In this document: positions 12,122 to 41,233 of the stretch, piece by piece | Layout of the letters: every line of letters begins with the position of its first letter | Numbering within the stretch: position 1 is the first letter of the stretch | Source: Planctomycetia bacterium | Lineage (GTDB): Bacteria; Planctomycetota; UBA8108; SXIK01 | Length of the DNA: 42,281 nucleotides | Reading direction: 5' to 3' | NCBI GenBank assembly: GCA_005772855.1 | Contig: SXIK01000111.1 | Location: forward strand, 1 to 42,281 | Notes under the pieces: generated by a model | Told to the model about the DNA's origin: nothing | The model's database searches: none | The model's input: the letters and a program-made list of their open reading frames with translations, nothing else | Made by a program: the position numbers and the translations under genes

Positions 12122-12258
12122 ATTTCAATTATACTTGTTCTTAAAGTACAAATTATTTCTGTGTCTGGCGCGGGCGCAGCTGTGCGGCTGCCGTGTTCCT
12201 CCGTGGCGGGCTTTGCGAACCGCGTTGACGCTTCAATGCCCCCCGGGGTAACAAAAAA

Positions 12259-12331
12259 TAGCGGCGTCCGGATTTGAACCGGAGACCTACGGATTATGAG
12301 ACCGTTGCTCTACCAACTGAGCTACGCCGCC
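12259..12331 (-). tRNA. tRNA-Met (anticodon CAT, elongator type)
   Basis: The reverse strand folds into a full cloverleaf. It has acceptor GGCGGCG/CGCCGCT with a G1-U72 wobble, D-arm TAGCTCAGTTGGTAGAGCA, anticodon loop CTCATAA, T-arm TCCGG-TTCAAAT-CCGGA and discriminator A73. The CAT anticodon lies at 12296-12298. It lacks the three G-C pairs of the anticodon stem and the C1-A72 mismatch of an initiator, so elongator Met is the better reading. The 3' CCA is not encoded; TTTTTTG follows directly and may act as part of a terminator. Ile2 is less likely, since the other CAT tRNA at 41157 fits Ile2 better. Confidence 0.9.
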
Positions 12332-12362
12332 ACACGGTCGGAATTCCATGAAAAGCGACTGG

Positions 12363-24605: not shown

Positions 24606-25991
24606 ATGCTTCCCACGGCTTATGTCTTGAATCCGGGCAGGTTCCGCAAAGGCGGGTGTGGAGTAACTCTCGCGCTATGCTTCCTGTTCCCGGTCACCTC
24701 TCAGTCGCAAGAGCTCGGAGCGGCTCCGGATCTGGACTTACTCGAAAAGAACCTCAAGCGTGCGATGGAGACCGAGAAGTTCGACACGGCAGAGTCGCTC
24801 GTCGGTCAGCTCGGAGCGACCGGTAATCCCAGGGCTGCTGACATCATCATTCAAAACGCTTTCACCGGTAACAACTATGGGGTCGAAAAGGCCGCCGGGG
24901 CGGCGATCCTGAGCATGAAGGATCCAGCCGTGCGCGCCAGGGTCCTCGAGGCCGCACAGGCCGCGAAAAATCCAAAGCCACGATCCCGGATCATCCTCTT
25001 TTCCCTGGTTGCAAAGTTTGCCGTGGACGATCCCGAGTCACTGGGCGTCCTGTGCGCCGGTCTCGAGGACCCCAGCAAGCCTGTGGTTTTGACTGTCCTA
25101 AAAAAGCTAAGGGAGCTCATGAAGCCTGAGTCGGTCCCCGCATTGATCGAGGCGCTGGAAGTGCGCGAAAAAAAGGGGCGAGACAGAATCTACTTCGATA
25201 TTGTGCGCAATTTGAAGGCACTCACGGGAGTGGATCTCGAGTTTTCAGCCGACTGGAGGAACTACACAGCCGCGCACCAGGGTGCAAGGCCAGCCCCGAC
25301 AAGGAATCCGTCAGGGAGTGCTACCGGGGTCTTCAAACGGCCAAAGTTCTTCTCCGTCAGCGTCGACTCCGACCGTGTCCTCTTCGTCATCGACGTCTCG
25401 GAGAGCATGCTCCAGGTGGATCCCGAGCTCAAGGCTCCAGGTCCAAAAGAGGAGACAACGAGATCAACCGGAACAACTGCTGTTGCGAAAAAGAAGTCCC
25501 CTGAAACAAGGAAGTCAGGGCCTTCCACACGGGAACGATTGACCCGAGTGAAGGTGGAGCTGATTAGCGTGATCAACAGTCTTGAGCCAAAGACACGATT
25601 TGGACTCCTGAGCTTTAGCCATGAGCTGGCGTGGTGGGGGGAAGGCAGAGGATCGCTCAGAGAGGCTTCACCAGGCAACAAGTCAGACGCGGTCACCTGG
25701 GTGCGCAACCTGGTCGCCAGTGGGGCAACCCGAACCGACCTGGCGCTCGAGGCGGCGCTGAGTATCCCGGACATCGACACGATTTTGCTCCTCACGGACG
25801 GTGCGCCGAGGAACGAGCACAATCAACCCGTCGACATCGGGACCATCCTGGCGCGAACCAAGGAGACAAACCGTTTTCTACGTTGCCGCATCCACACCAT
25901 CAGCTTTGCGCAGATTGTTGCCAAGCGCATGGTCAAGTTTGTGAAGGAGCTTGCGGTAGCGAACGACGGAGTCTGCACGATGCTGCCTTGA
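24606..25991 (+). CDS. Exported HEAT-repeat and von Willebrand A domain protein
   Basis: This 461-residue protein has a signal-peptide-like N-terminus (GVTLALCFLFPVTSQSQE). A helical HEAT-like repeat region spans about 45-200 (GNPRAADIIIQNAF, VEKAAGAAILSM). A VWA domain starts near residue 255, with the MIDAS motif DVSES near 262, the Thr of SGATRTD and Asp of LLLTDGAP. A low-complexity Lys/Thr/Ser insert (about 276-305) interrupts the VWA fold after the first strand. VWA domains bind metal and mediate protein contacts; the partner is unknown. It is transcribed away from the minus-strand operon across a 267-nt divergent gap in which I see no clear promoter. Confidence 0.85.
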   Translation: MLPTAYVLNPGRFRKGGCGVTLALCFLFPVTSQSQELGAAPDLDLLEKNLKRAMETEKFDTAESLVGQLGATGNPRAADIIIQNAFTGNNYGVEKAAGAAILSMKDPAVRARVLEAAQAAKNPKPRSRIILFSLVAKFAVDDPESLGVLCAGLEDPSKPVVLTVLKKLRELMKPESVPALIEALEVREKKGRDRIYFDIVRNLKALTGVDLEFSADWRNYTAAHQGARPAPTRNPSGSATGVFKRPKFFSVSVDSDRVLFVIDVSESMLQVDPELKAPGPKEETTRSTGTTAVAKKKSPETRKSGPSTRERLTRVKVELISVINSLEPKTRFGLLSFSHELAWWGEGRGSLREASPGNKSDAVTWVRNLVASGATRTDLALEAALSIPDIDTILLLTDGAPRNEHNQPVDIGTILARTKETNRFLRCRIHTISFAQIVAKRMVKFVKELAVANDGVCTMLP

Positions 25992-26184: not shown

Positions 26185-26601
26185 TTGAAAAATTGGAAGG
26201 ACGGCTCGGCCTCGTTGGCCAAGCTGTGCGCAAGGATCTTGTACGAGAACAAATTGGACGATATCCGGGTGCTGGACGTGGGGGATTCGCTTCAGATAAC
26301 CGACTTTTTTGTGATTGCCTCCGGGAGCACCCCGCGGCACTTGAAGGCAGCGAGTGACGAGCTCCTCAGGAATCTCAGAGAAAGTGGTACGTTGCGGCGG
26401 GGCATTGAAGGCTATCGAGAGGCGAAGTGGGTGTTGATTGACTTGGACACTGTAGTGATCCACCTCTTTCTGGGCGAGAGCCGATCGTTTTACGGCCTCG
26501 AGAATCTCTGGGGTGATTGCTCCACTGTGGAGTGGATGGGCCCCTCGAGCGAGGAGCCCGCCAGGGCCGTGGCACTGCCGGCTGCCCGGATCTCGAAATA
26601 G
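26185..26601 (+). CDS. rsfS: Ribosomal silencing factor RsfS (Iojap family)
   Basis: RsfS binds uL14 on the 50S subunit and blocks subunit joining during nutrient limitation. From TTG 26185 the protein has 138 residues with the family core: LAKLCARILYENKLDDIRVLD, ITDFFVIASGSTPRHLKAAS, REAKWVLIDLDTVVIHLF and the FYGLENLWGD end. The length is close to the family average once this start is used. The short C-terminal tail is extra. tsaE begins 16 nt after the stop; the genes look like the start of a plus-strand operon. Confidence 0.93.
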   Translation: MKNWKDGSASLAKLCARILYENKLDDIRVLDVGDSLQITDFFVIASGSTPRHLKAASDELLRNLRESGTLRRGIEGYREAKWVLIDLDTVVIHLFLGESRSFYGLENLWGDCSTVEWMGPSSEEPARAVALPAARISK

Positions 26602-26617
26602 CGTCGCTTCCTTCGCC

Positions 26618-27163
26618 ATGAATCGTCCGGACCGTCCGATCTGCGAGCTGGTGTTCGACTCGAAGTCGCCTGAAGCGACTTGCCAGATCGCAAAGCGTCT
26701 GGGCGAGAGCCTCCGGGGTGGCGAGGTGCTCGCTCTCGTCGGTGACCTTGGAAGCGGCAAGACCACATTCACCAGGGGGCTCTGTCTGGGACTCGGGCTT
26801 GACGACGCAAGGCAGGTATCAAGCCCCACGTACGTTCTGGAACACCTCTATGCGGGCCGATTCTGCATTTATCATTACGACGCTTATCGGCTGGTCGGGC
26901 CCGAGGAGTTCGTGGCCCTTGGCTTCAGGGAGCACCTGAGTCCACAGAGCGTTCTCGTCATCGAGTGGGCTGACAAGGTCCTGGAGTCCCTGCCGCCGGA
27001 GCGACTAGAGATTGAATTGTCCATGCAGAACGATGTGCCGAATGTCTCGGAAGCGCCCGATTCTCGCCGCAGGATCCGCTTTTCCGGACCTCGAGAAGTG
27101 TGGGGCCATCGCCTCGGTGGTATCTTTCCGACGAAGGACTCAAGTTTCGGGCTCCTCGGATAG
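26618..27163 (+). CDS. tsaE: tRNA threonylcarbamoyladenosine biosynthesis ATPase TsaE
   Basis: TsaE is the ATPase that works with TsaB and TsaD to make t6A37 on ANN-decoding tRNAs. The 181 residues contain Walker A GDLGSGKTTF, the switch-like SSPTYVLEHLY, YHYDAYRL and VLVIEWADKVLESLP. The C-terminal 30-40 residues (after IELSMQ) are an extension rich in Arg/Gly. ATG 26618 fits the family start; the frame is open further upstream inside rsfS but without matching sequence. The kinase gene follows after 12 nt. Confidence 0.93.
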   Translation: MNRPDRPICELVFDSKSPEATCQIAKRLGESLRGGEVLALVGDLGSGKTTFTRGLCLGLGLDDARQVSSPTYVLEHLYAGRFCIYHYDAYRLVGPEEFVALGFREHLSPQSVLVIEWADKVLESLPPERLEIELSMQNDVPNVSEAPDSRRRIRFSGPREVWGHRLGGIFPTKDSSFGLLG

Positions 27164-27175
27164 ATAGATGATCCG

Positions 27176-28489
<1,314 letters not shown>

Positions 28490-28562
28490 GATTCAAGTTG
28501 AACCCAGGAGCGATGCGAACGTAGCATCCCAGTTTTCGGGATCAGGACACCTCGATTCATCC

Positions 28563-28961
28563 ATGACCCTTGACGGAGAGAGCGCCTTTCTTTTCCAGGA
28601 GACTCACCTGGCGGGACCTCTGGAGGAACTACGTTCCACAGTGGAGAAGAAGACCCGTATGCACTTGAGCCTCGGAGAAACCGCGGCAGCCGCTCGACTG
28701 GACCTCGCTTATCAGATCGCCCGGCAGGCTCTTGAGTCTGCGCTTGTGACGCCGCAGCTGGCGTTGCGTGCGCCTTCCGCCGAGGGCATCGAGTCGAGCC
28801 TGGGAGTCCCGAATCCATCCTCCTGCGAGCCTGAGCGACCCGAGGCCTTGCTCGGGCAAGACCCGTCTCCCGCTGGCTCGAGCGGGGAAGTCCTCCCCCC
28901 GGGATCCAACGGCGGTAGGCCCGCCGCTTCGCGTGCTTCCGAGGCGGAAGAGAGAACTTAG
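28563..28961 (+). CDS. Small hypothetical protein between kinase and ATPase genes
   Basis: An open frame of 132 codons fills most of the 476-nt gap between the kinase and the ATPase gene, ending 4 nt before the ATPase ATG. Its first 60 residues look protein-like and helical (FLFQETHLAGPLEELRSTVE, AAAARLDLAYQIARQALESA); the rest is Pro/Ser/Glu-rich. No ribosome binding site is obvious at ATG 28563, and the frame is open from 28467 inside the kinase gene. I do not recognise it. It could be a real linker gene or a chance ORF. Confidence 0.4.
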   Translation: MTLDGESAFLFQETHLAGPLEELRSTVEKKTRMHLSLGETAAAARLDLAYQIARQALESALVTPQLALRAPSAEGIESSLGVPNPSSCEPERPEALLGQDPSPAGSSGEVLPPGSNGGRPAASRASEAEERT

Positions 28962-28965
28962 AACC

Positions 28966-31332
28966 ATGCTCATTCGTGCCATTCGGGCCGAGAACTTCAT
29001 GAGGTTCGATCGGCTTGAGATCTCGAACATTCCGCGACGTGGGCTCATCGGTATCGAGGGCCCCAACGAGTCTGGCAAGAGCACGATTGGAGAAATTCTC
29101 CTCTTCGTATTCTTCGGGAAGACCCGCAGCTCCTCGGATGCTTCGCTTTCAAGCCTCATCCGTTGGGGGACCGACTCCATGACCGCAGAGGTGGAGTTCA
29201 CGCTCTCGCCTGCTTCCGATTCTGACCGAAGTTGCTGCGCACTTCTGGCCCCACAGGACTTCCTGATCTTTCGCCAGATTGACAAGTACGGCACGAACTA
29301 CGTGAAGGTCCTGGAGCTTCCGGAGCGCAAGGAGATGGCCAGCGGCTGCCGTCAAGTTGCTGATTTCGTCGCCAGCCGCGTAAAGTTTGATTTTGGAGAG
29401 CTCCAAAACTCATTCTTTCACGACCAGCACTCCGGGCGCAGGACTCCGGGGTCGAACACGGCTTTTTTCGAGGTGGCGGCAGGACTCAAGCACCTTCGTG
29501 CGGCGGTCGAACAGTTGCGACGTGAAAGGGAGCCCAAGGATCGGCAGTTCGTGTACTTCCAAAAGGAGATTGCGCGCAACCTGGTCCAGGCCGAGAAGCT
29601 CGAGAAGGTTGCGCTGAAGATCCCCGACGTCTCTCAAAAACTGACGAAGGTAATGGATTCGCTGCAGGACAAGTCCCGACGCACCAGTGAGCTCAAAAGG
29701 CGTGCAGACCTCTTTCGATCCGACGCAGGTCAGATGGAATACCGAGCCAAGCGGGTGGAACAACTGAGAGATCTGCCTCTTGAGTCCTTCCAGCAGGAGG
29801 TTGAGAAGCTGGCATCACAGGGGCCGCCGGCCAGCCTGCGGGACTCACGCTCGTTGGAAGAGGACACGCTGCGGTCAATGTTGAATGCATCGCAGAGCGC
29901 AGGCGAACGCCTCAAGGCCCTGGCTCTCGACTGGGGTGCGTTTGTCACCAAAGTTCGGCTCGAGGCCGATCGTATCTGCGCCATCCTCAGACCCGATAAC
30001 CCGCAAGGACTTGATGCCAGGCTAGGCGCCCTGCGCTCCAGCCTTCGCGTGGAGGAAGGCCGCAGGGCTCGAAAAATGGCGCTCGTGGCCCTGAGCCTGT
30101 TCACTGCTGCCGGCCTGAGTGCTCTGGCGGCTCTCTCGCATGCGGGAAAGATCTTCGCACCCGAAGTCTGGCCTGAGGGCTGGAAACTGACATTCCCTAT
30201 CCAGCTCGCAGGCGCCGCCGTCTTGTTTTTCCTGGCTGCTGGGGTGGCGTTCTTCGCTCGGGGAAAATCGCAGGGGCGAATTCATGGCTTGCGGCAACTG
30301 GAGAACACTATCAAGGCAGAGGCGGAAGCTTTGCAAGCTACTCAAAGGGGAGCTGCGCCGTGGCTGGCAGCAGTGCTTCTGAGGGATCTGCCTCTTTCCC
30401 TCGCGGGGACGTCCGCCTCGGGCCTGGACCCACTGGCGAAGGACTCGCAGGACTTCCAGGCCCGACATTCAGCCCTGCTGTCGACCGAGGGGGAATCCGC
30501 GCTGGATCGCCAACTCCAGGCTTTCGCGAAGAACGAACGTGACTTGCGAGCTCGGTTCATGGGTGAGGCGCAAAAGCTTGAAAAAGTTTTGCAGGAGGAG
30601 GACGCTGCCACGAAGAAGCTGCTCCTCGACAAGGAGCGGACAGAAGGCGAGCTTCGGGAATGCCAATCGCAAGCGGGAAAGCGTGATCTGCTCCTCGCAA
30701 GGAACAAGGAGCTCGATGAAAAATCGGCCCTGGCCCGGGAGGAAATCGATCTGCAGCTGCTTGCGGGCCGACTTCTCGAGGAGACGATCGGCTCGATCGG
30801 CACCAGGATCGGGCCGGCCCTGACTCGATTCACAAAGAGCATCCTTCCCGCTTTGACCTCCGGCCGGTACCGCGAGGTCCGGGTAGACAACGGTCTCGAG
30901 GTGAAGGTCTTTTCCAGCGAAAAGAGTGATTTTCTGGCTCTCCACGAGTTGAGCGGGGGTACGTCGGAGGCCCTGTCGCTGGCTCTTCGACTTGCAGTCT
31001 CGCATGCATTTACGAGCGCACGCACGGGACAATCGCAGTTCGTCTTCCTTGATGAGCCGTTCAAGATGATGGACGCGACGCGCGCCATGGAGACCTTGCG
31101 GCTGCTGCCGAGGTTAAGCCCCAGCCTGGAGCAGTTCTTTGTGGCCCAGCCGGCCTTCCAGCCCGAGGCAAGGAGCCTTTTTGACTTCATGATCCACACG
31201 TCCCACGACGGGGCTCGTCTGGAAGCCCACGGCGACATTGGCCTGGCACCGGGGACCACTCACGAAGCCGATTCGAGGCTTCGAGCTCATGGGGAAGGGC
31301 GTGATCCGGTGGAATACGCCGCTCGGACATGA
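28966..31332 (+). CDS. SMC/Rad50/YhaN-like AAA ATPase with two central membrane segments
   Basis: The 788-residue protein has an ABC-type head split by coiled coils as in SMC, RecN, SbcC and YhaN. Walker A is GPNESGKST (near residue 30), the signature is LSGGTSEALSLALRLA near 665, and Walker B is FVFLDEPFKMMD. Long coiled coils run about 170-360 and 440-610. Between them, where SMC proteins have a hinge, two hydrophobic helices lie near 371-391 and 412-431, as in the membrane-anchored YhaN type. Its start at ATG 28966 follows GGAAGAGAGAA. No SbcD/YhaO nuclease gene is adjacent. The stop overlaps the miaA start (ATGA). Confidence 0.9.
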   Translation: MLIRAIRAENFMRFDRLEISNIPRRGLIGIEGPNESGKSTIGEILLFVFFGKTRSSSDASLSSLIRWGTDSMTAEVEFTLSPASDSDRSCCALLAPQDFLIFRQIDKYGTNYVKVLELPERKEMASGCRQVADFVASRVKFDFGELQNSFFHDQHSGRRTPGSNTAFFEVAAGLKHLRAAVEQLRREREPKDRQFVYFQKEIARNLVQAEKLEKVALKIPDVSQKLTKVMDSLQDKSRRTSELKRRADLFRSDAGQMEYRAKRVEQLRDLPLESFQQEVEKLASQGPPASLRDSRSLEEDTLRSMLNASQSAGERLKALALDWGAFVTKVRLEADRICAILRPDNPQGLDARLGALRSSLRVEEGRRARKMALVALSLFTAAGLSALAALSHAGKIFAPEVWPEGWKLTFPIQLAGAAVLFFLAAGVAFFARGKSQGRIHGLRQLENTIKAEAEALQATQRGAAPWLAAVLLRDLPLSLAGTSASGLDPLAKDSQDFQARHSALLSTEGESALDRQLQAFAKNERDLRARFMGEAQKLEKVLQEEDAATKKLLLDKERTEGELRECQSQAGKRDLLLARNKELDEKSALAREEIDLQLLAGRLLEETIGSIGTRIGPALTRFTKSILPALTSGRYREVRVDNGLEVKVFSSEKSDFLALHELSGGTSEALSLALRLAVSHAFTSARTGQSQFVFLDEPFKMMDATRAMETLRLLPRLSPSLEQFFVAQPAFQPEARSLFDFMIHTSHDGARLEAHGDIGLAPGTTHEADSRLRAHGEGRDPVEYAART

Positions 31333-32282
31333 GCGGTGAAATTGCCGAGCTCGTCGTCATCACGGGCCCAACGGCCAGCGGGAAGGGGAGCCTCGCGTTT
31401 GAGTTGAGCTTGAGGCTCTCGAGAGAAATTATTTCGCTCGACTCCATGAAGGTTTACCGGGAGATGGATGTTGGCACGGCCAAGCCGTCCCCCGAACGCC
31501 GCTCGAGGGTCCAATATCACTTGCTTGACATCCTCGACCCCAACGAGGAGTTCAGCACCGGGGAGTACCTGCCTCTGCTCGAGAGCACGATCGCCGATTG
31601 TCAGAAGCGGGGCCAGAATCCCATCATTGCCGGAGGAACGGCCCTTTATTTGAAAGGCTATCTGGACGGATTTCAAAAGGGCCCGGAGGCCGATTGGGGT
31701 GTCCGGAACCGCCTCCGTGAGGAGGCTCTGCAACTTGGGCCCGAGGCGCTCCACGAGCGGCTGCGAGGCCACGATCCCCAGGCAGCCTCAAAGATCCATC
31801 CCAGGGACTCGCGGCGGATCGTACGCGCGCTGGAGGTGGTGGAGAAGACGGGGCGACCCATCAGCGAGGAGTGGGCGTGGAAGGCCCACCCCGTGCCTCC
31901 CCGGCACGTCCGGATCTTCGGCCTCGAGTGGCCCCGGGAGGAGCTTTATGCCCGGATCAACCTTCGCGTGGAAAGAATGGTGGAAGCGGGCCTCTTCGAG
32001 GAGGCCGTGCGCTTGCGCCAGAGAATCCCTCCCCTGAGTCGCACTGCGGCGCAGGCAATTGGTTTGAAAGAAGTTTGGCAAGGGGCGGATCTGGCCCGCT
32101 CAAGAAAAGAGGTCGTGGAGCGCATTCAACAAGGCACCCGGCGGTTTGCGAAAAGCCAACTGACGTGGTTCCGCAAGATGCCGATCGAATGGATCCCGAC
32201 CACGGGGACTGCGCGTGTGGAAGACCTTGCAGATGAGGTCCTCCGTAGGCTGACTCGCGACAGTCCTCAAGTTTGTTGCTGA
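31329..32282 (+). CDS. miaA: tRNA dimethylallyltransferase MiaA
   Basis: MiaA transfers a dimethylallyl group to A37 of tRNAs reading UNN codons. The 317 residues carry the family features: a P-loop-like GPTASGKGSLAF, the LDSMKVYREMDVGTAKP block with catalytic Asp, VQYHLLDILDPNEEFS, IIAGGTALYLKGYLDG, DSRRIVRALEV, and the C-terminal TRRFAKSQLTWFRKM. The residue after the P-loop Lys is Gly where Thr/Ser is usual (see findings). It is translationally coupled to the upstream ATPase gene by a 4-nt overlap and is the last gene of the plus-strand string, convergent with a small lipoprotein gene. Confidence 0.95.
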   Translation: MSGEIAELVVITGPTASGKGSLAFELSLRLSREIISLDSMKVYREMDVGTAKPSPERRSRVQYHLLDILDPNEEFSTGEYLPLLESTIADCQKRGQNPIIAGGTALYLKGYLDGFQKGPEADWGVRNRLREEALQLGPEALHERLRGHDPQAASKIHPRDSRRIVRALEVVEKTGRPISEEWAWKAHPVPPRHVRIFGLEWPREELYARINLRVERMVEAGLFEEAVRLRQRIPPLSRTAAQAIGLKEVWQGADLARSRKEVVERIQQGTRRFAKSQLTWFRKMPIEWIPTTGTARVEDLADEVLRRLTRDSPQVCC

Positions 32283-33834: not shown

Positions 33835-36015
33835 ATGAAGCTCACGAACAAGACCAAGAAGATGAAGAAGAAATTTGACTCGGCCATTCAGGCACGAGCG
33901 CTCCTGCGGCTCGGAACTGAGACCTGGAGCCGACAAGCCATCCATATCCATCCCTCACTGAAGGATCGGATTGCCTCCTTGCGAGTCCGCGTTGAAGATC
34001 TCGCCTGGAAGTGCGATCCGGCCCTTCTTGGATTCAAGTCCACCCGCAAGATTCGTCCTTTGCGAGGGATGCTGGGCCAGCGCCAAGCATTGCGGGCTCT
34101 GCGCCTCGGGCTGACTGTCTCGAGCCCAGGGTACAACCTTTTCCTCTGTGGGTTAAACGGTACCGAATCCCTCCGCACGATCGAGGAATACGTGGGCTCC
34201 CTGCACCTTCCCGGCCAGCACGTTCCCGAGCGGTGCTATGTTCAGAACTTCGACGACCCGCAGCGACCCAAGCTGCTGAATCTGCCAGAAGGGGAAGGCG
34301 AAAAACTCCTCAAGGGCGTAACCCTCGTGCTCAAGCGCCTCCAGAAGGCGCTGCAAAAGAAGACTGAAAAGCAATGGCGATCGGTGGCCAAGCAGGTGTT
34401 GGAACGAGAGTTTCCCGGATTAATTGAGCTGTTCGAGTCGTCGGAAGCCCGCCAGTGGCTTGAAGCCTGGCGCCGGAACCTCCTGGATCAAATTCACAAC
34501 GCCGTCATCGAGGATTTCGAGGTCAACCTCGTCAACTCAGGTACCCAACGTGTCGCCCCTGTCGTGGTCGAGAGAATCCCCAACACGAGCAATCTCTTCG
34601 GCTGGATTGGACGGCGACCGATTGGTGAGCAGGCCCCGGCCCCTCATTTCACAGAAATTCGGGGCGGATCCTTCCTCAAGGCGGACGGGGGATTCCTGAT
34701 CCTGAACGCAGCGGACTTTTACTCGCTGCCGTCGTCCTGGAACATGCTGAAGAGCTGCCTCAAGTACGGCACCCTCCAGATCGAGGACACCGATCCGTCC
34801 AATCCATCTCGCATGGGTGGCCTAAAACCGGAGCCGATCTCCCTCAACGTCAAGGTGATTCTCCTCGGGGATTTCGAGCTCTATGACGAGCTCTTCGAGG
34901 CGGATCCGGACTTCCGCGATATTTTCAAGGTACGAGTCGATTTCGACTCCGAGCAGACCTTGAGCTCGCTTGTCCTGCGCCGGGAGTACCCGGCCTTCGT
35001 CGCCAGGGTGTGCAAGGAAAATTCACTTCTTCCGCTTTCCGCTCCGGCGGTCGCACGGGTGATTGAGTTGGCCATGCGGAAGGCTGGCCGCAAGAAAAAG
35101 GTAACTCTCCAATCCTGGCTGATGGCCGATCTTCTCAGGGAGGCTGATTACTGGGCCCGTGACGCCCGGCGGCGTCTGATCACGGAGCAGGATGTCACGA
35201 AAGCCGAGCTCGAGAGCAATCAACGCCTTAACCTTGTCGAAACAAAGATTGCCGAGATGATCATGGAGGGCACCATCCTGATCTCGACCAGTGGGTCGCG
35301 AATCGGGCAGGTAAACGGCCTCGCAATCTACGACATGGGGGACTACCTCTTCGGAAAGCCAAGCCGCATCACCGCAGAAACCGCCTACGGCCAGGGGGGG
35401 ATCATCAACATCGAGCGGGAGAGCGGGTTTAGCGGTCGCAGTCACGACAAGGGCGTCCAGATCCTGGGTGGATTCTTGCGATCGAGATTTGCTCAGCGTC
35501 GGCCCCTGAACCTGACCGCGAGCGTTTGCTTCGAGCAGTCCTACTCCGGAATTGATGGTGACAGTGCCTCTGCGTCGGAAATCTATGCGCTACTTTCAAG
35601 CCTGGCCAAGTTGCCGCTCCGTCAGGATATCGCCGTCACTGGCTCCATGAATCAAAAGGGAGACATTCAACCCATCGGGGGCGTGAACGAGAAGATCGAG
35701 GGGTTCTTTGATTGCGTCCGCGCTGGCCACCCGACGGGTAAGGAAGGCGTCATCATTCCGCGCAAGAACGTCAATGAGCTCATGCTCAGGGATGACGTCG
35801 TTCGAGCGGTGAAACGTGGAAAGTTTCACATCTACGCAATCAATACCGTGGAGGAAGGCTTCGAGATCCTCACCGGCCTGCCTGCAGGCCGACGTCGCAA
35901 GGACGGGACCTACACTCCTCACAGTGCCTTTGCCCTCGTGGACAGCCGTCTGGAGGAGATCACCAATGGTTTGAGGCAGTTTCAGGCCGGCGAGGAGGAT
36001 GGTGGAGGACCCTGA
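33835..36015 (+). CDS. Lon-related protease (AAA_32/Lon_C type) with degenerate P-loop
   Basis: The 726-residue protein matches the family often named Lon-related putative ATP-dependent protease. The N-terminal half has the family pattern (YNLFLCGLNGTESLRT where a P-loop would be, then CYVQNFDDPQRPKLLNLPEG, FTEIRGGSFLKADGGFLILN). The C-terminal Lon-type protease domain has the catalytic dyad Ser577 (GIDGDSASAS) and Lys620 (GGVNEKIEG), spaced 43 residues as in Lon. The Walker A site lacks the GK[ST] triplet, so ATP use is doubtful. It starts at ATG 33835 after the repeat cluster and converges on thiL. Confidence 0.92.
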   Translation: MKLTNKTKKMKKKFDSAIQARALLRLGTETWSRQAIHIHPSLKDRIASLRVRVEDLAWKCDPALLGFKSTRKIRPLRGMLGQRQALRALRLGLTVSSPGYNLFLCGLNGTESLRTIEEYVGSLHLPGQHVPERCYVQNFDDPQRPKLLNLPEGEGEKLLKGVTLVLKRLQKALQKKTEKQWRSVAKQVLEREFPGLIELFESSEARQWLEAWRRNLLDQIHNAVIEDFEVNLVNSGTQRVAPVVVERIPNTSNLFGWIGRRPIGEQAPAPHFTEIRGGSFLKADGGFLILNAADFYSLPSSWNMLKSCLKYGTLQIEDTDPSNPSRMGGLKPEPISLNVKVILLGDFELYDELFEADPDFRDIFKVRVDFDSEQTLSSLVLRREYPAFVARVCKENSLLPLSAPAVARVIELAMRKAGRKKKVTLQSWLMADLLREADYWARDARRRLITEQDVTKAELESNQRLNLVETKIAEMIMEGTILISTSGSRIGQVNGLAIYDMGDYLFGKPSRITAETAYGQGGIINIERESGFSGRSHDKGVQILGGFLRSRFAQRRPLNLTASVCFEQSYSGIDGDSASASEIYALLSSLAKLPLRQDIAVTGSMNQKGDIQPIGGVNEKIEGFFDCVRAGHPTGKEGVIIPRKNVNELMLRDDVVRAVKRGKFHIYAINTVEEGFEILTGLPAGRRRKDGTYTPHSAFALVDSRLEEITNGLRQFQAGEEDGGGP

Positions 36016-41156: not shown

Positions 41157-41233
41157 GGGCCCATAGCTCAGTTGGTGAGAGCAGGGGACTCATAATCTCC
41201 GGGTCGCAGGTGCGAGTCCTGCTGGGCCCACCA
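41157..41233 (+). tRNA. tRNA with CAT anticodon, best read as tRNA-Ile2 (lysidine type)
   Basis: This is a complete cloverleaf with encoded CCA: acceptor GGGCCCA/TGGGCCC, D-arm TAGCTCAGTTGGTGAGAGCA, anticodon stem GGGGA/TCTCC with loop CTCATAA (CAT at 41191-41193), T-arm GCAGG-TGCGAGT-CCTGC, A73 and CCA. The acceptor GGGCCC and the GACTCATAATC-type anticodon arm resemble tRNA-Ile2, in which TilS changes C34 to lysidine to read AUA. It lacks initiator features. Elongator Met is the alternative. Confidence 0.9.

What the first reader, a model, noticed from the sequence alone, without database searches (positions are those of the whole stretch)
26185..32282. Kinase and membrane-anchored SMC-like ATPase embedded in a translation-factor operon
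rsfS, tsaE, a zinc-ribbon Ser/Thr kinase, a small ORF, a YhaN-like ATPase with two central membrane helices, and miaA lie on one strand with short gaps or overlaps. TsaE and MiaA both act on position 37 of tRNA and RsfS on the 50S subunit. The kinase and the ATPase are not standard members of such a cluster. A link between signalling, envelope-tethered DNA or RNA handling, and translation control is a speculative but testable idea.
Basis: partly seen in the sequence, partly recalled or inferred. Interest (0 to 1): 0.6.

Follow-up and report, generated by a model that had tools for sequence, protein, structure and literature searches.

The report
Membrane-tethered Rad50-like ATPase with tiny partner
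A Rad50-like DNA-clamp type ATPase that is anchored in the membrane is made together with a tiny, unnamed two-helix protein, in this bacterium and in distant ones, which points to an undescribed two-part machine; its place among tRNA genes is a local habit of one bacterial class.

Summary
In detail: rsfS, tsaE, kinase, small ORF, ATPase and miaA lie on one strand with gaps of at most 73 nt or overlaps. The order is conserved across the window's Planctomycetota class: tsaE upstream in 24 of 27 loci, miaA downstream in 17 of 27; the contig ends first in all but one miss. The reading changes. (1) The constant unit is the small ORF plus the ATPase. In 392 phylum genomes the small-ORF profile hits 35 times; 34 abut the ATPase, the 35th is at a contig end beside the kinase. 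Elsewhere the pair occurs without tsaE/miaA. (2) The kinase is accessory, found at this locus. (3) The ATPase has Rad50 heads and a membrane hairpin instead of a zinc hook; it fails the YhaN model, and the genome has a separate nuclease/SMC-like pair. (4) An LpxH-like neighbour in related families is replaced by LpxI in the window's family, so it is no Mre11 substitute. Function is inferred: an inner-membrane-tethered, ATP-gated nucleic-acid clamp.

The parts
26185..26601 (+). rsfS (ribosome silencing factor), first gene of the run
   Evidence: PF02410 96.2 bits, TIGR00090 94.5 bits
26618..27163 (+). tsaE (tRNA t6A ATPase subunit)
   Evidence: PF02367 116.2 bits, TIGR00150 104.3 bits
27176..28489 (+). 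Ser/Thr protein kinase; N-terminal MshE-related domain (27197-27367), CxxC...CxxC zinc ribbon (27389-27460), kinase domain (27683-28447) with VAVK, HRDIKPEN, ADLG, APEQ
   Evidence: PF00069 203.9 bits; NF053729 31.7 bits, under the cut-off of 38; alignment of 10 kinases
28563..28961 (+). small partner protein (132 aa): conserved two-helix hairpin, motif PLEEL/F...R, then a disordered tail
   Evidence: no Pfam, NCBIfam, PADLOC or PHROGs family (one sub-threshold Pfam match, E 0.035, for the longer frame); profile hits abut the ATPase in 34 of 35; AlphaFold2 helices 19-36 and 40-62 at pLDDT about 96-98
28966..31332 (+). membrane-anchored Rad50-like ATPase (788 aa)
   Evidence: AAA_23, SMC_N, SbcC_Walker_B; fold Z 26.3 to Rad50 3auy for the relative L092
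29059..29085 (+). Walker A GPNESGKST of the ATPase
30079..30135 (+). first central hydrophobic segment (TM1), in the place of the zinc hook
   Evidence: flanks richer in K/R than the loop in 48 of 48 homologues
30199..30255 (+). second central hydrophobic segment (TM2)
30949..30963 (+). ABC signature LSGGT
31039..31059 (+). Walker B FVFLDEP
31329..32282 (+). miaA (tRNA dimethylallyltransferase), start overlaps the ATPase stop by 4 nt
   Evidence: PF01715 265.5 bits, TIGR00174 256.1 bits
24606..25991 (+). HEAT/VWA-like protein upstream, found upstream of the same locus in 20 of 27 class loci; may or may not belong to the operon (193-nt gap)

Best explanation
The core is a two-gene module: a Rad50/SbcC-type ABC ATPase whose coiled-coil apex is a membrane hairpin, and a constant, translationally coupled two-helix protein. 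Shown by computation: the pair is conserved across Planctomycetota and in Gammaproteobacteria and a few others; the ATPase has Rad50-type heads, coiled-coil arms and two central transmembrane segments with positive charges outside the loop, so the heads should lie in the cytoplasm; no nuclease gene accompanies it. Inferred: two ATPases dimerise on ATP around nucleic acid (most likely DNA), tethering it to the inner membrane; the small protein is a subunit that braces the heads or coiled-coil bases, doing structurally what the helix-loop-helix of Mre11 or a kleisin does elsewhere (recalled), without a nuclease. In the window's class the pair sits in an inherited housekeeping operon (rsfS-tsaE-...-[lpxH]-miaA), and in some families a kinase with a zinc ribbon and an MshE-like N-terminus stands in front of it, probably to regulate the pair.
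For: Co-occurrence: 34 of 35 small-ORF hits adjoin the ATPase in 392 genomes. Overlapping stop/start in 36 of 39 loci measured, 21 by 4 nt and 13 by 7 nt. Planctomycetal and gammaproteobacterial small proteins: hhalign probability 74.9%, E 2.6e-5 over 55 columns. Two central hydrophobic segments in 48 of 49 full-length homologues, K/R richer in the flanks than in the loop in 48 of 48; two ordinary SbcC controls have CxxC and no such segment. Rad50 tops the fold comparison: Z 26.3, rmsd 5.1 over 355 residues; SbcC 23.6; SMC/condensin near 22. Walker A in 47 of 49 and Walker B in 47 of 49. The own genome's nuclease has its own ATPase next to it.
Against: No functional data; nucleic-acid binding is inferred from fold kinship only. 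That the small protein touches the ATPase is inferred from gene order: the joined model gives no contact measure in the tool output, and the hairpin is predicted equally well alone. The homology of the planctomycetal and gammaproteobacterial small proteins rests on a moderate profile match. My signature-motif pattern was met in only 38 of 49, and L057 has lost the Walker B glutamate, so not all are typical ATPases. The joined model reads a stop codon through as its linker.
Confidence: 0.5

Rival explanations
1. The module serves the envelope (lipid A or outer-membrane building) rather than nucleic acid: the heads drive or sense something at the inner membrane.
For: lpxH-like gene directly between ATPase and miaA in all 10 loci read; kdsA upstream of the pair in an unrelated class (L170); an MlaE-like permease near it in L166 (my reading of the sequence).
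Against: No neighbour recurs across classes; RNase II and HrpB neighbours in Gammaproteobacteria; lpxH swapped for lpxI in the window's family without loss of the pair; heads are closest to Rad50.
Confidence: 0.18
2. It is a Mre11-Rad50/YhaO-YhaN type repair machine whose nuclease is encoded elsewhere in the genome.
For: Rad50-type heads; the own genome has a calcineurin-type phosphoesterase on another contig.
Against: That phosphoesterase is followed, overlapping, by its own SMC-like ATPase; a match to the SbcD model is found in only 12 of 29 class genomes, over the cut-off in 3, while the ATPase is in 27 of 29; AAA_27 not met.
Confidence: 0.12
3. One reading: the kinase and ATPase link signalling and the envelope to translation or tRNA modification.
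For: Fixed order with rsfS, tsaE and miaA in the class; among 50 loci, mostly gammaproteobacterial, an RNase II-like gene near the pair in 12 and an HrpB-like one in 22.
Against: The pair occurs without these genes in other classes; the operon also holds lpxH in most families; 19 of 27 ATPase genomes show no kinase at the locus.
Confidence: 0.07
4. It is an anti-phage system of the MADS or Lamassu kind.
For: Weak PADLOC matches of the ATPase to mad3 (4.7e-15) and LmuB (1.5e-7) and of the kinase to many defence kinases.
Against: Present in 16 of 16 high-quality genomes of the class in one fixed housekeeping site, with ATPase and MiaA trees grouping the same families; defence genes are usually patchy (general knowledge). 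The matches lie on shared ATPase and kinase domains.
Confidence: 0.05

Closest known systems
Rad50/SbcC (Mre11-Rad50, SbcCD)
   Same: ABC-type head split at the two ends of one chain, coiled-coil arms, Walker A, signature, Walker B; best fold match Z 26.3
   Different: Membrane hairpin in place of the CxxC zinc hook; a two-helix protein in place of the nuclease next door
YhaN/YhaO (AAA_27 ATPase with phosphoesterase)
   Different: AAA_27 under the cut-off in the window's ATPase, well over it in YhaN-type proteins of the class (L200 71.6 bits, L201 224.5 bits); L201 shows no hydrophobic segment
Lamassu LmuB / MADS mad3
   Same: SMC-like ATPases with weak sequence matches; Lamassu chains in the Foldseek list
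   Different: No other Lamassu or MADS genes at the locus; fixed housekeeping location
MshEN c-di-GMP receptor domain (kinase N-terminus)
   Same: NF053729 matches in 8 of 8 kinases tested, over the cut-off in one (L203, 41.0 against 38)
   Different: Under the cut-off in 7 of 8, window 31.7 bits; whether it binds c-di-GMP is open
LpxH (UDP-2,3-diacylglucosamine diphosphatase)
   Same: Neighbour in related families; NF003743 over the cut-off in L033 (170.6 against 134)
   Different: Absent from the window's locus and not matched in its genome, which has LpxI instead

Membership tests
Rad50/SbcC | ABC head with Walker A, signature and Walker B at the two ends of a coiled-coil protein | tested here: met
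Rad50/SbcC | CxxC zinc hook at the coiled-coil apex | tested here: not met
   no CxxC in the window's ATPase; two hydrophobic segments there instead
Rad50/SbcC | Mre11/SbcD nuclease encoded next door | tested here: not met
   window genes; the neighbouring phosphoesterase of relatives is LpxH-like and alternates with LpxI
Rad50/SbcC | ATP-dependent DNA end binding | not testable with these tools
   needs protein
YhaN (AAA_27) | match to PF13514 over its cut-off | tested here: not met
   13.8 bits against 22
YhaN (AAA_27) | YhaO-type phosphoesterase partner next door | tested here: not met
   none at the locus; the own genome's phosphoesterase adjoins another ATPase
Lamassu / MADS defence | partner genes of the system beside the ATPase | tested here: not met
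   neighbours are rsfS, tsaE, kinase, small ORF, miaA; the small ORF has no PADLOC match. The kinase matches mad6 only through its kinase domain
Active Ser/Thr (Hanks) kinase | catalytic Lys, HRD, DxG and APE motifs | tested here: met
   VAVK, HRDIKPEN, ADLG, APEQ in the alignment; motif names recalled
MshEN c-di-GMP receptor | match to NF053729 over its cut-off | tested here: not met
   31.7 bits against 38 for the window
MshEN c-di-GMP receptor | binds c-di-GMP | not testable with these tools
   needs a binding assay

The most novel reading that the evidence does not exclude
A new class of SMC-like complex: a Rad50-type ATPase fixed to the inner membrane by its apex, with a two-helix subunit in place of the nuclease or kleisin, that ties the chromosome (or RNA) to the envelope in Planctomycetota and Gammaproteobacteria, in some lineages under control of a dedicated zinc- and perhaps c-di-GMP-sensing kinase.
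Probability: 0.3. Interest if true: 0.75.

Novelty: new variant of a known kind. Interest (0 to 1): 0.5.

Why it matters
A membrane-anchored Rad50-like ATPase with a constant small partner and no nuclease would be a distinct way of holding nucleic acid at the envelope. The pair occurs in a named strain (Sedimenticola selenatireducens BK-1, L129), so a deletion can be tried. It also gives a protein family where the libraries searched have none, and corrects the idea that these genes belong to tRNA metabolism because they sit beside tsaE and miaA.

Tried and rejected
Mre11-like partner: the phosphoesterase between ATPase and miaA in related families looked like one; rejected because it matches LpxH models and alternates without overlap with LpxI: LpxH-like in 18 and LpxI in 7 of 29 genomes, none with both, 4 with neither, LpxB in 27. 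None of the 18 passes the TIGR01854 cut-off. Trans nuclease: rejected as likely. Defence: rejected as likely. Fold of the small protein: Foldseek gave nothing better than E 2.1 and the sequence search of PDB nothing better than 0.29; a two-helix hairpin carries little signal. Joined model: I hoped for contacts; the tool reports none, and the hairpin is equally confident alone. Conserved neighbours outside the class: only small sets, such as a secreted-looking ORF with a DVC-KKGCW motif upstream in L168, L171, L172, L179. Papers: five searches, listings and abstract starts only, brought up no description of such a pair; one search was on MshEN and kinases. Most subscription papers are not held, so absence from print is not shown.

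Weak points told: the iterated profile was trained on several of the loci it then lists, so its E-values for those are not independent; the gammaproteobacterial small ORFs scored only 0.0006 to above 1 there. In one search the script picked a small ORF in 39 of 43 loci; L089, L090 and L092 clearly have one and L101 a doubtful one by eye. One search clustered the upstream ORF in 29 of 50 loci (4 of the 54 loci given showed no ATPase ORF in that script). Long branches warn against reading the deep order of the ATPase tree. In one search one of 50 sequences was dropped as too short and one (L101) had no second segment.
Full report
What is in the window. Six genes lie on the plus strand from 26185 to 32282: rsfS, tsaE, a Ser/Thr kinase, a small ORF, a large ATPase and miaA, all but the small ORF with family matches over their cut-offs. 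Gaps are 16, 12, 73 and 4 nt and the last pair overlaps by 4. The window is one contig of a 5.03-Mb draft genome; most closely related records are titled Planctomycetota or Planctomycetes.

Conservation of the order. The ATPase is found in 27 of 29 genomes of the class, 16 of 16 of the high-quality ones. Besides the window I read 27 loci from the 26 other genomes. TsaE lies upstream on the same strand in 24 of 27; two of the others begin inside the ATPase and one (L039) shows about 1.3 kb without it. MiaA lies downstream in 17 of 27; in the other ten the contig ends in or at the end of the ATPase. ATPase and MiaA trees group the same families.

The small ORF is the partner. It is present upstream of the ATPase also where the kinase is missing. 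A profile from 18 rows finds 35 hits in 392 genomes of the phylum; 34 adjoin the ATPase on the same strand, and the last lies at a contig end beside the kinase. ATPase matches in those 392 genomes show a natural break: 38 genomes at E 3e-40 or better, then 1e-25 (145 of 392 match at 0.001, most through the generic ATPase motifs); the 1e-25 match (L180) lies beside an SbcD-like frame and reads as an ordinary SbcCD pair. Of the 38, 34 have the profile hit by the ATPase; four more (L169, L171, L172, L177) show the ORF, with the caution that the iterated profile had learned from such rows. Outside the class none of the 20 loci read shows tsaE, and one (L175) has a divergent miaA nearby. In Gammaproteobacteria, Magnetococcales and a few others a similar short ORF precedes the ATPase; the two profiles match with probability 74.9%, E 2.6e-5. 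In 36 of 39 loci measured the small ORF overlaps the ATPase start. Synonymous changes exceed non-synonymous ones per site in 12 of 12 chosen pairs. No library searched names it. AlphaFold2 makes it a two-helix hairpin with a disordered tail.

The ATPase. In 48 of 49 full-length homologues two hydrophobic segments stand at the middle, and lysine plus arginine is richer in the flanks than in the loop in all 48, so both ends should face the cytoplasm. Two ordinary SbcC proteins used as controls have a CxxC there and no hydrophobic segment. A model of the relative L092, joined to its small protein by reading one stop through, has mean pLDDT 77.9 and pTM 0.57; Rad50 leads the fold list with Z 26.3, rmsd 5.1, 355 residues aligned, and Rad50 also leads Foldseek (E 3e-15). 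It is not YhaN by the family test: AAA_27 13.8 bits against 22, while YhaN-type proteins of the class score 71.6 and 224.5. The window's genome carries a phosphoesterase with its own SMC-like ATPase on another contig, and SbcD matches occur in only 12 of 29 class genomes, 3 over the cut-off.

The kinase. Its N-terminal 159 residues were sought in the 29 class genomes: the best match is at this locus in eight genomes, and in a ninth (G021) it follows a TsaE-like frame near the end of a contig; two more genomes have only weak matches elsewhere. Genomes with a kinase-less locus in f3 genus g6 and f5 genera g10-g12 have no match. On the ATPase tree the label needs three changes, which fits one gain and two losses. 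Catalytic motifs and two CxxC pairs are conserved. The N-terminus resembles the MshE c-di-GMP domain, over the cut-off in one of eight kinases, 31.7 against 38 in the window. Of the MshEN structure paper (PMC5013675) I saw the listing and abstract start only.

A false trail closed. All ten loci read in families f2, f5 and f6 have a calcineurin-type phosphoesterase between ATPase and miaA. It could have been an Mre11 stand-in. It matches LpxH models; 18 of 29 genomes have it and 7 have LpxI, with no overlap, and 27 have LpxB. It is on the ATPase contig in 11, beside an ATPase fragment in a twelfth, and the other six cannot be judged because the ATPase contig ends. It is therefore most likely lipid A LpxH, replaced by LpxI in the window's family. 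It also shows that the operon is mixed housekeeping, not a translation operon.

Mechanism. Shown: a coupled, conserved pair with Rad50-type heads and a membrane hairpin, no nuclease beside it. Inferred: ATP-gated clamping of nucleic acid at the inner membrane, with the small protein as a structural subunit; regulation by the kinase where present. The tRNA link has no support beyond position.

Verdict. Observation confirmed; interpretation partly supported. A new variant of a known kind (Rad50-like ATPases), with an unnamed partner family. The function is open, and the experiments named in the next steps would decide it.

Noticed in passing
L057 (G027) ATPase, C-terminal head: In L057 (family f6) the Walker B glutamate is replaced (FFDHP) while Walker A stays; the ATPase may be a binding-only form there.
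   Followed up: partly
class genomes G000-G028: LpxH-like (18 of 29) and LpxI (7 of 29) exclude each other, a clean non-orthologous replacement tied to family; four genomes show neither.
   Followed up: yes
L198:7843-11711 (G000:C151): Phosphoesterase overlapping an SMC-like ATPase without AAA_27 match or hydrophobic segment, cut by the contig end; a second nuclease/SMC-like pair of the genome.
   Followed up: partly
window 24606-25991: HEAT/VWA-like protein, upstream of the same locus in 20 of 27 class loci.
   Followed up: partly
window 33835-36015: LonB-like protease (AAA_32, LonB_AAA-LID); also downstream of miaA in L033.
   Followed up: no
G000:C21:5413-5652 and similar: Short open frames (about 200-260 residues) with the kinase-like N-terminus in several class genomes, apparently without a kinase domain.
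   Followed up: no
L168, L171, L172, L179: A secreted-looking ORF with a DVC-KKGCW motif precedes the small ORF in these planctomycetal loci; L179 also has a zinc-ribbon kinase on the other strand.
   Followed up: no
window 12258-12332 and 41157-41233: Two tRNA-Met genes with anticodon CAT.
   Followed up: no
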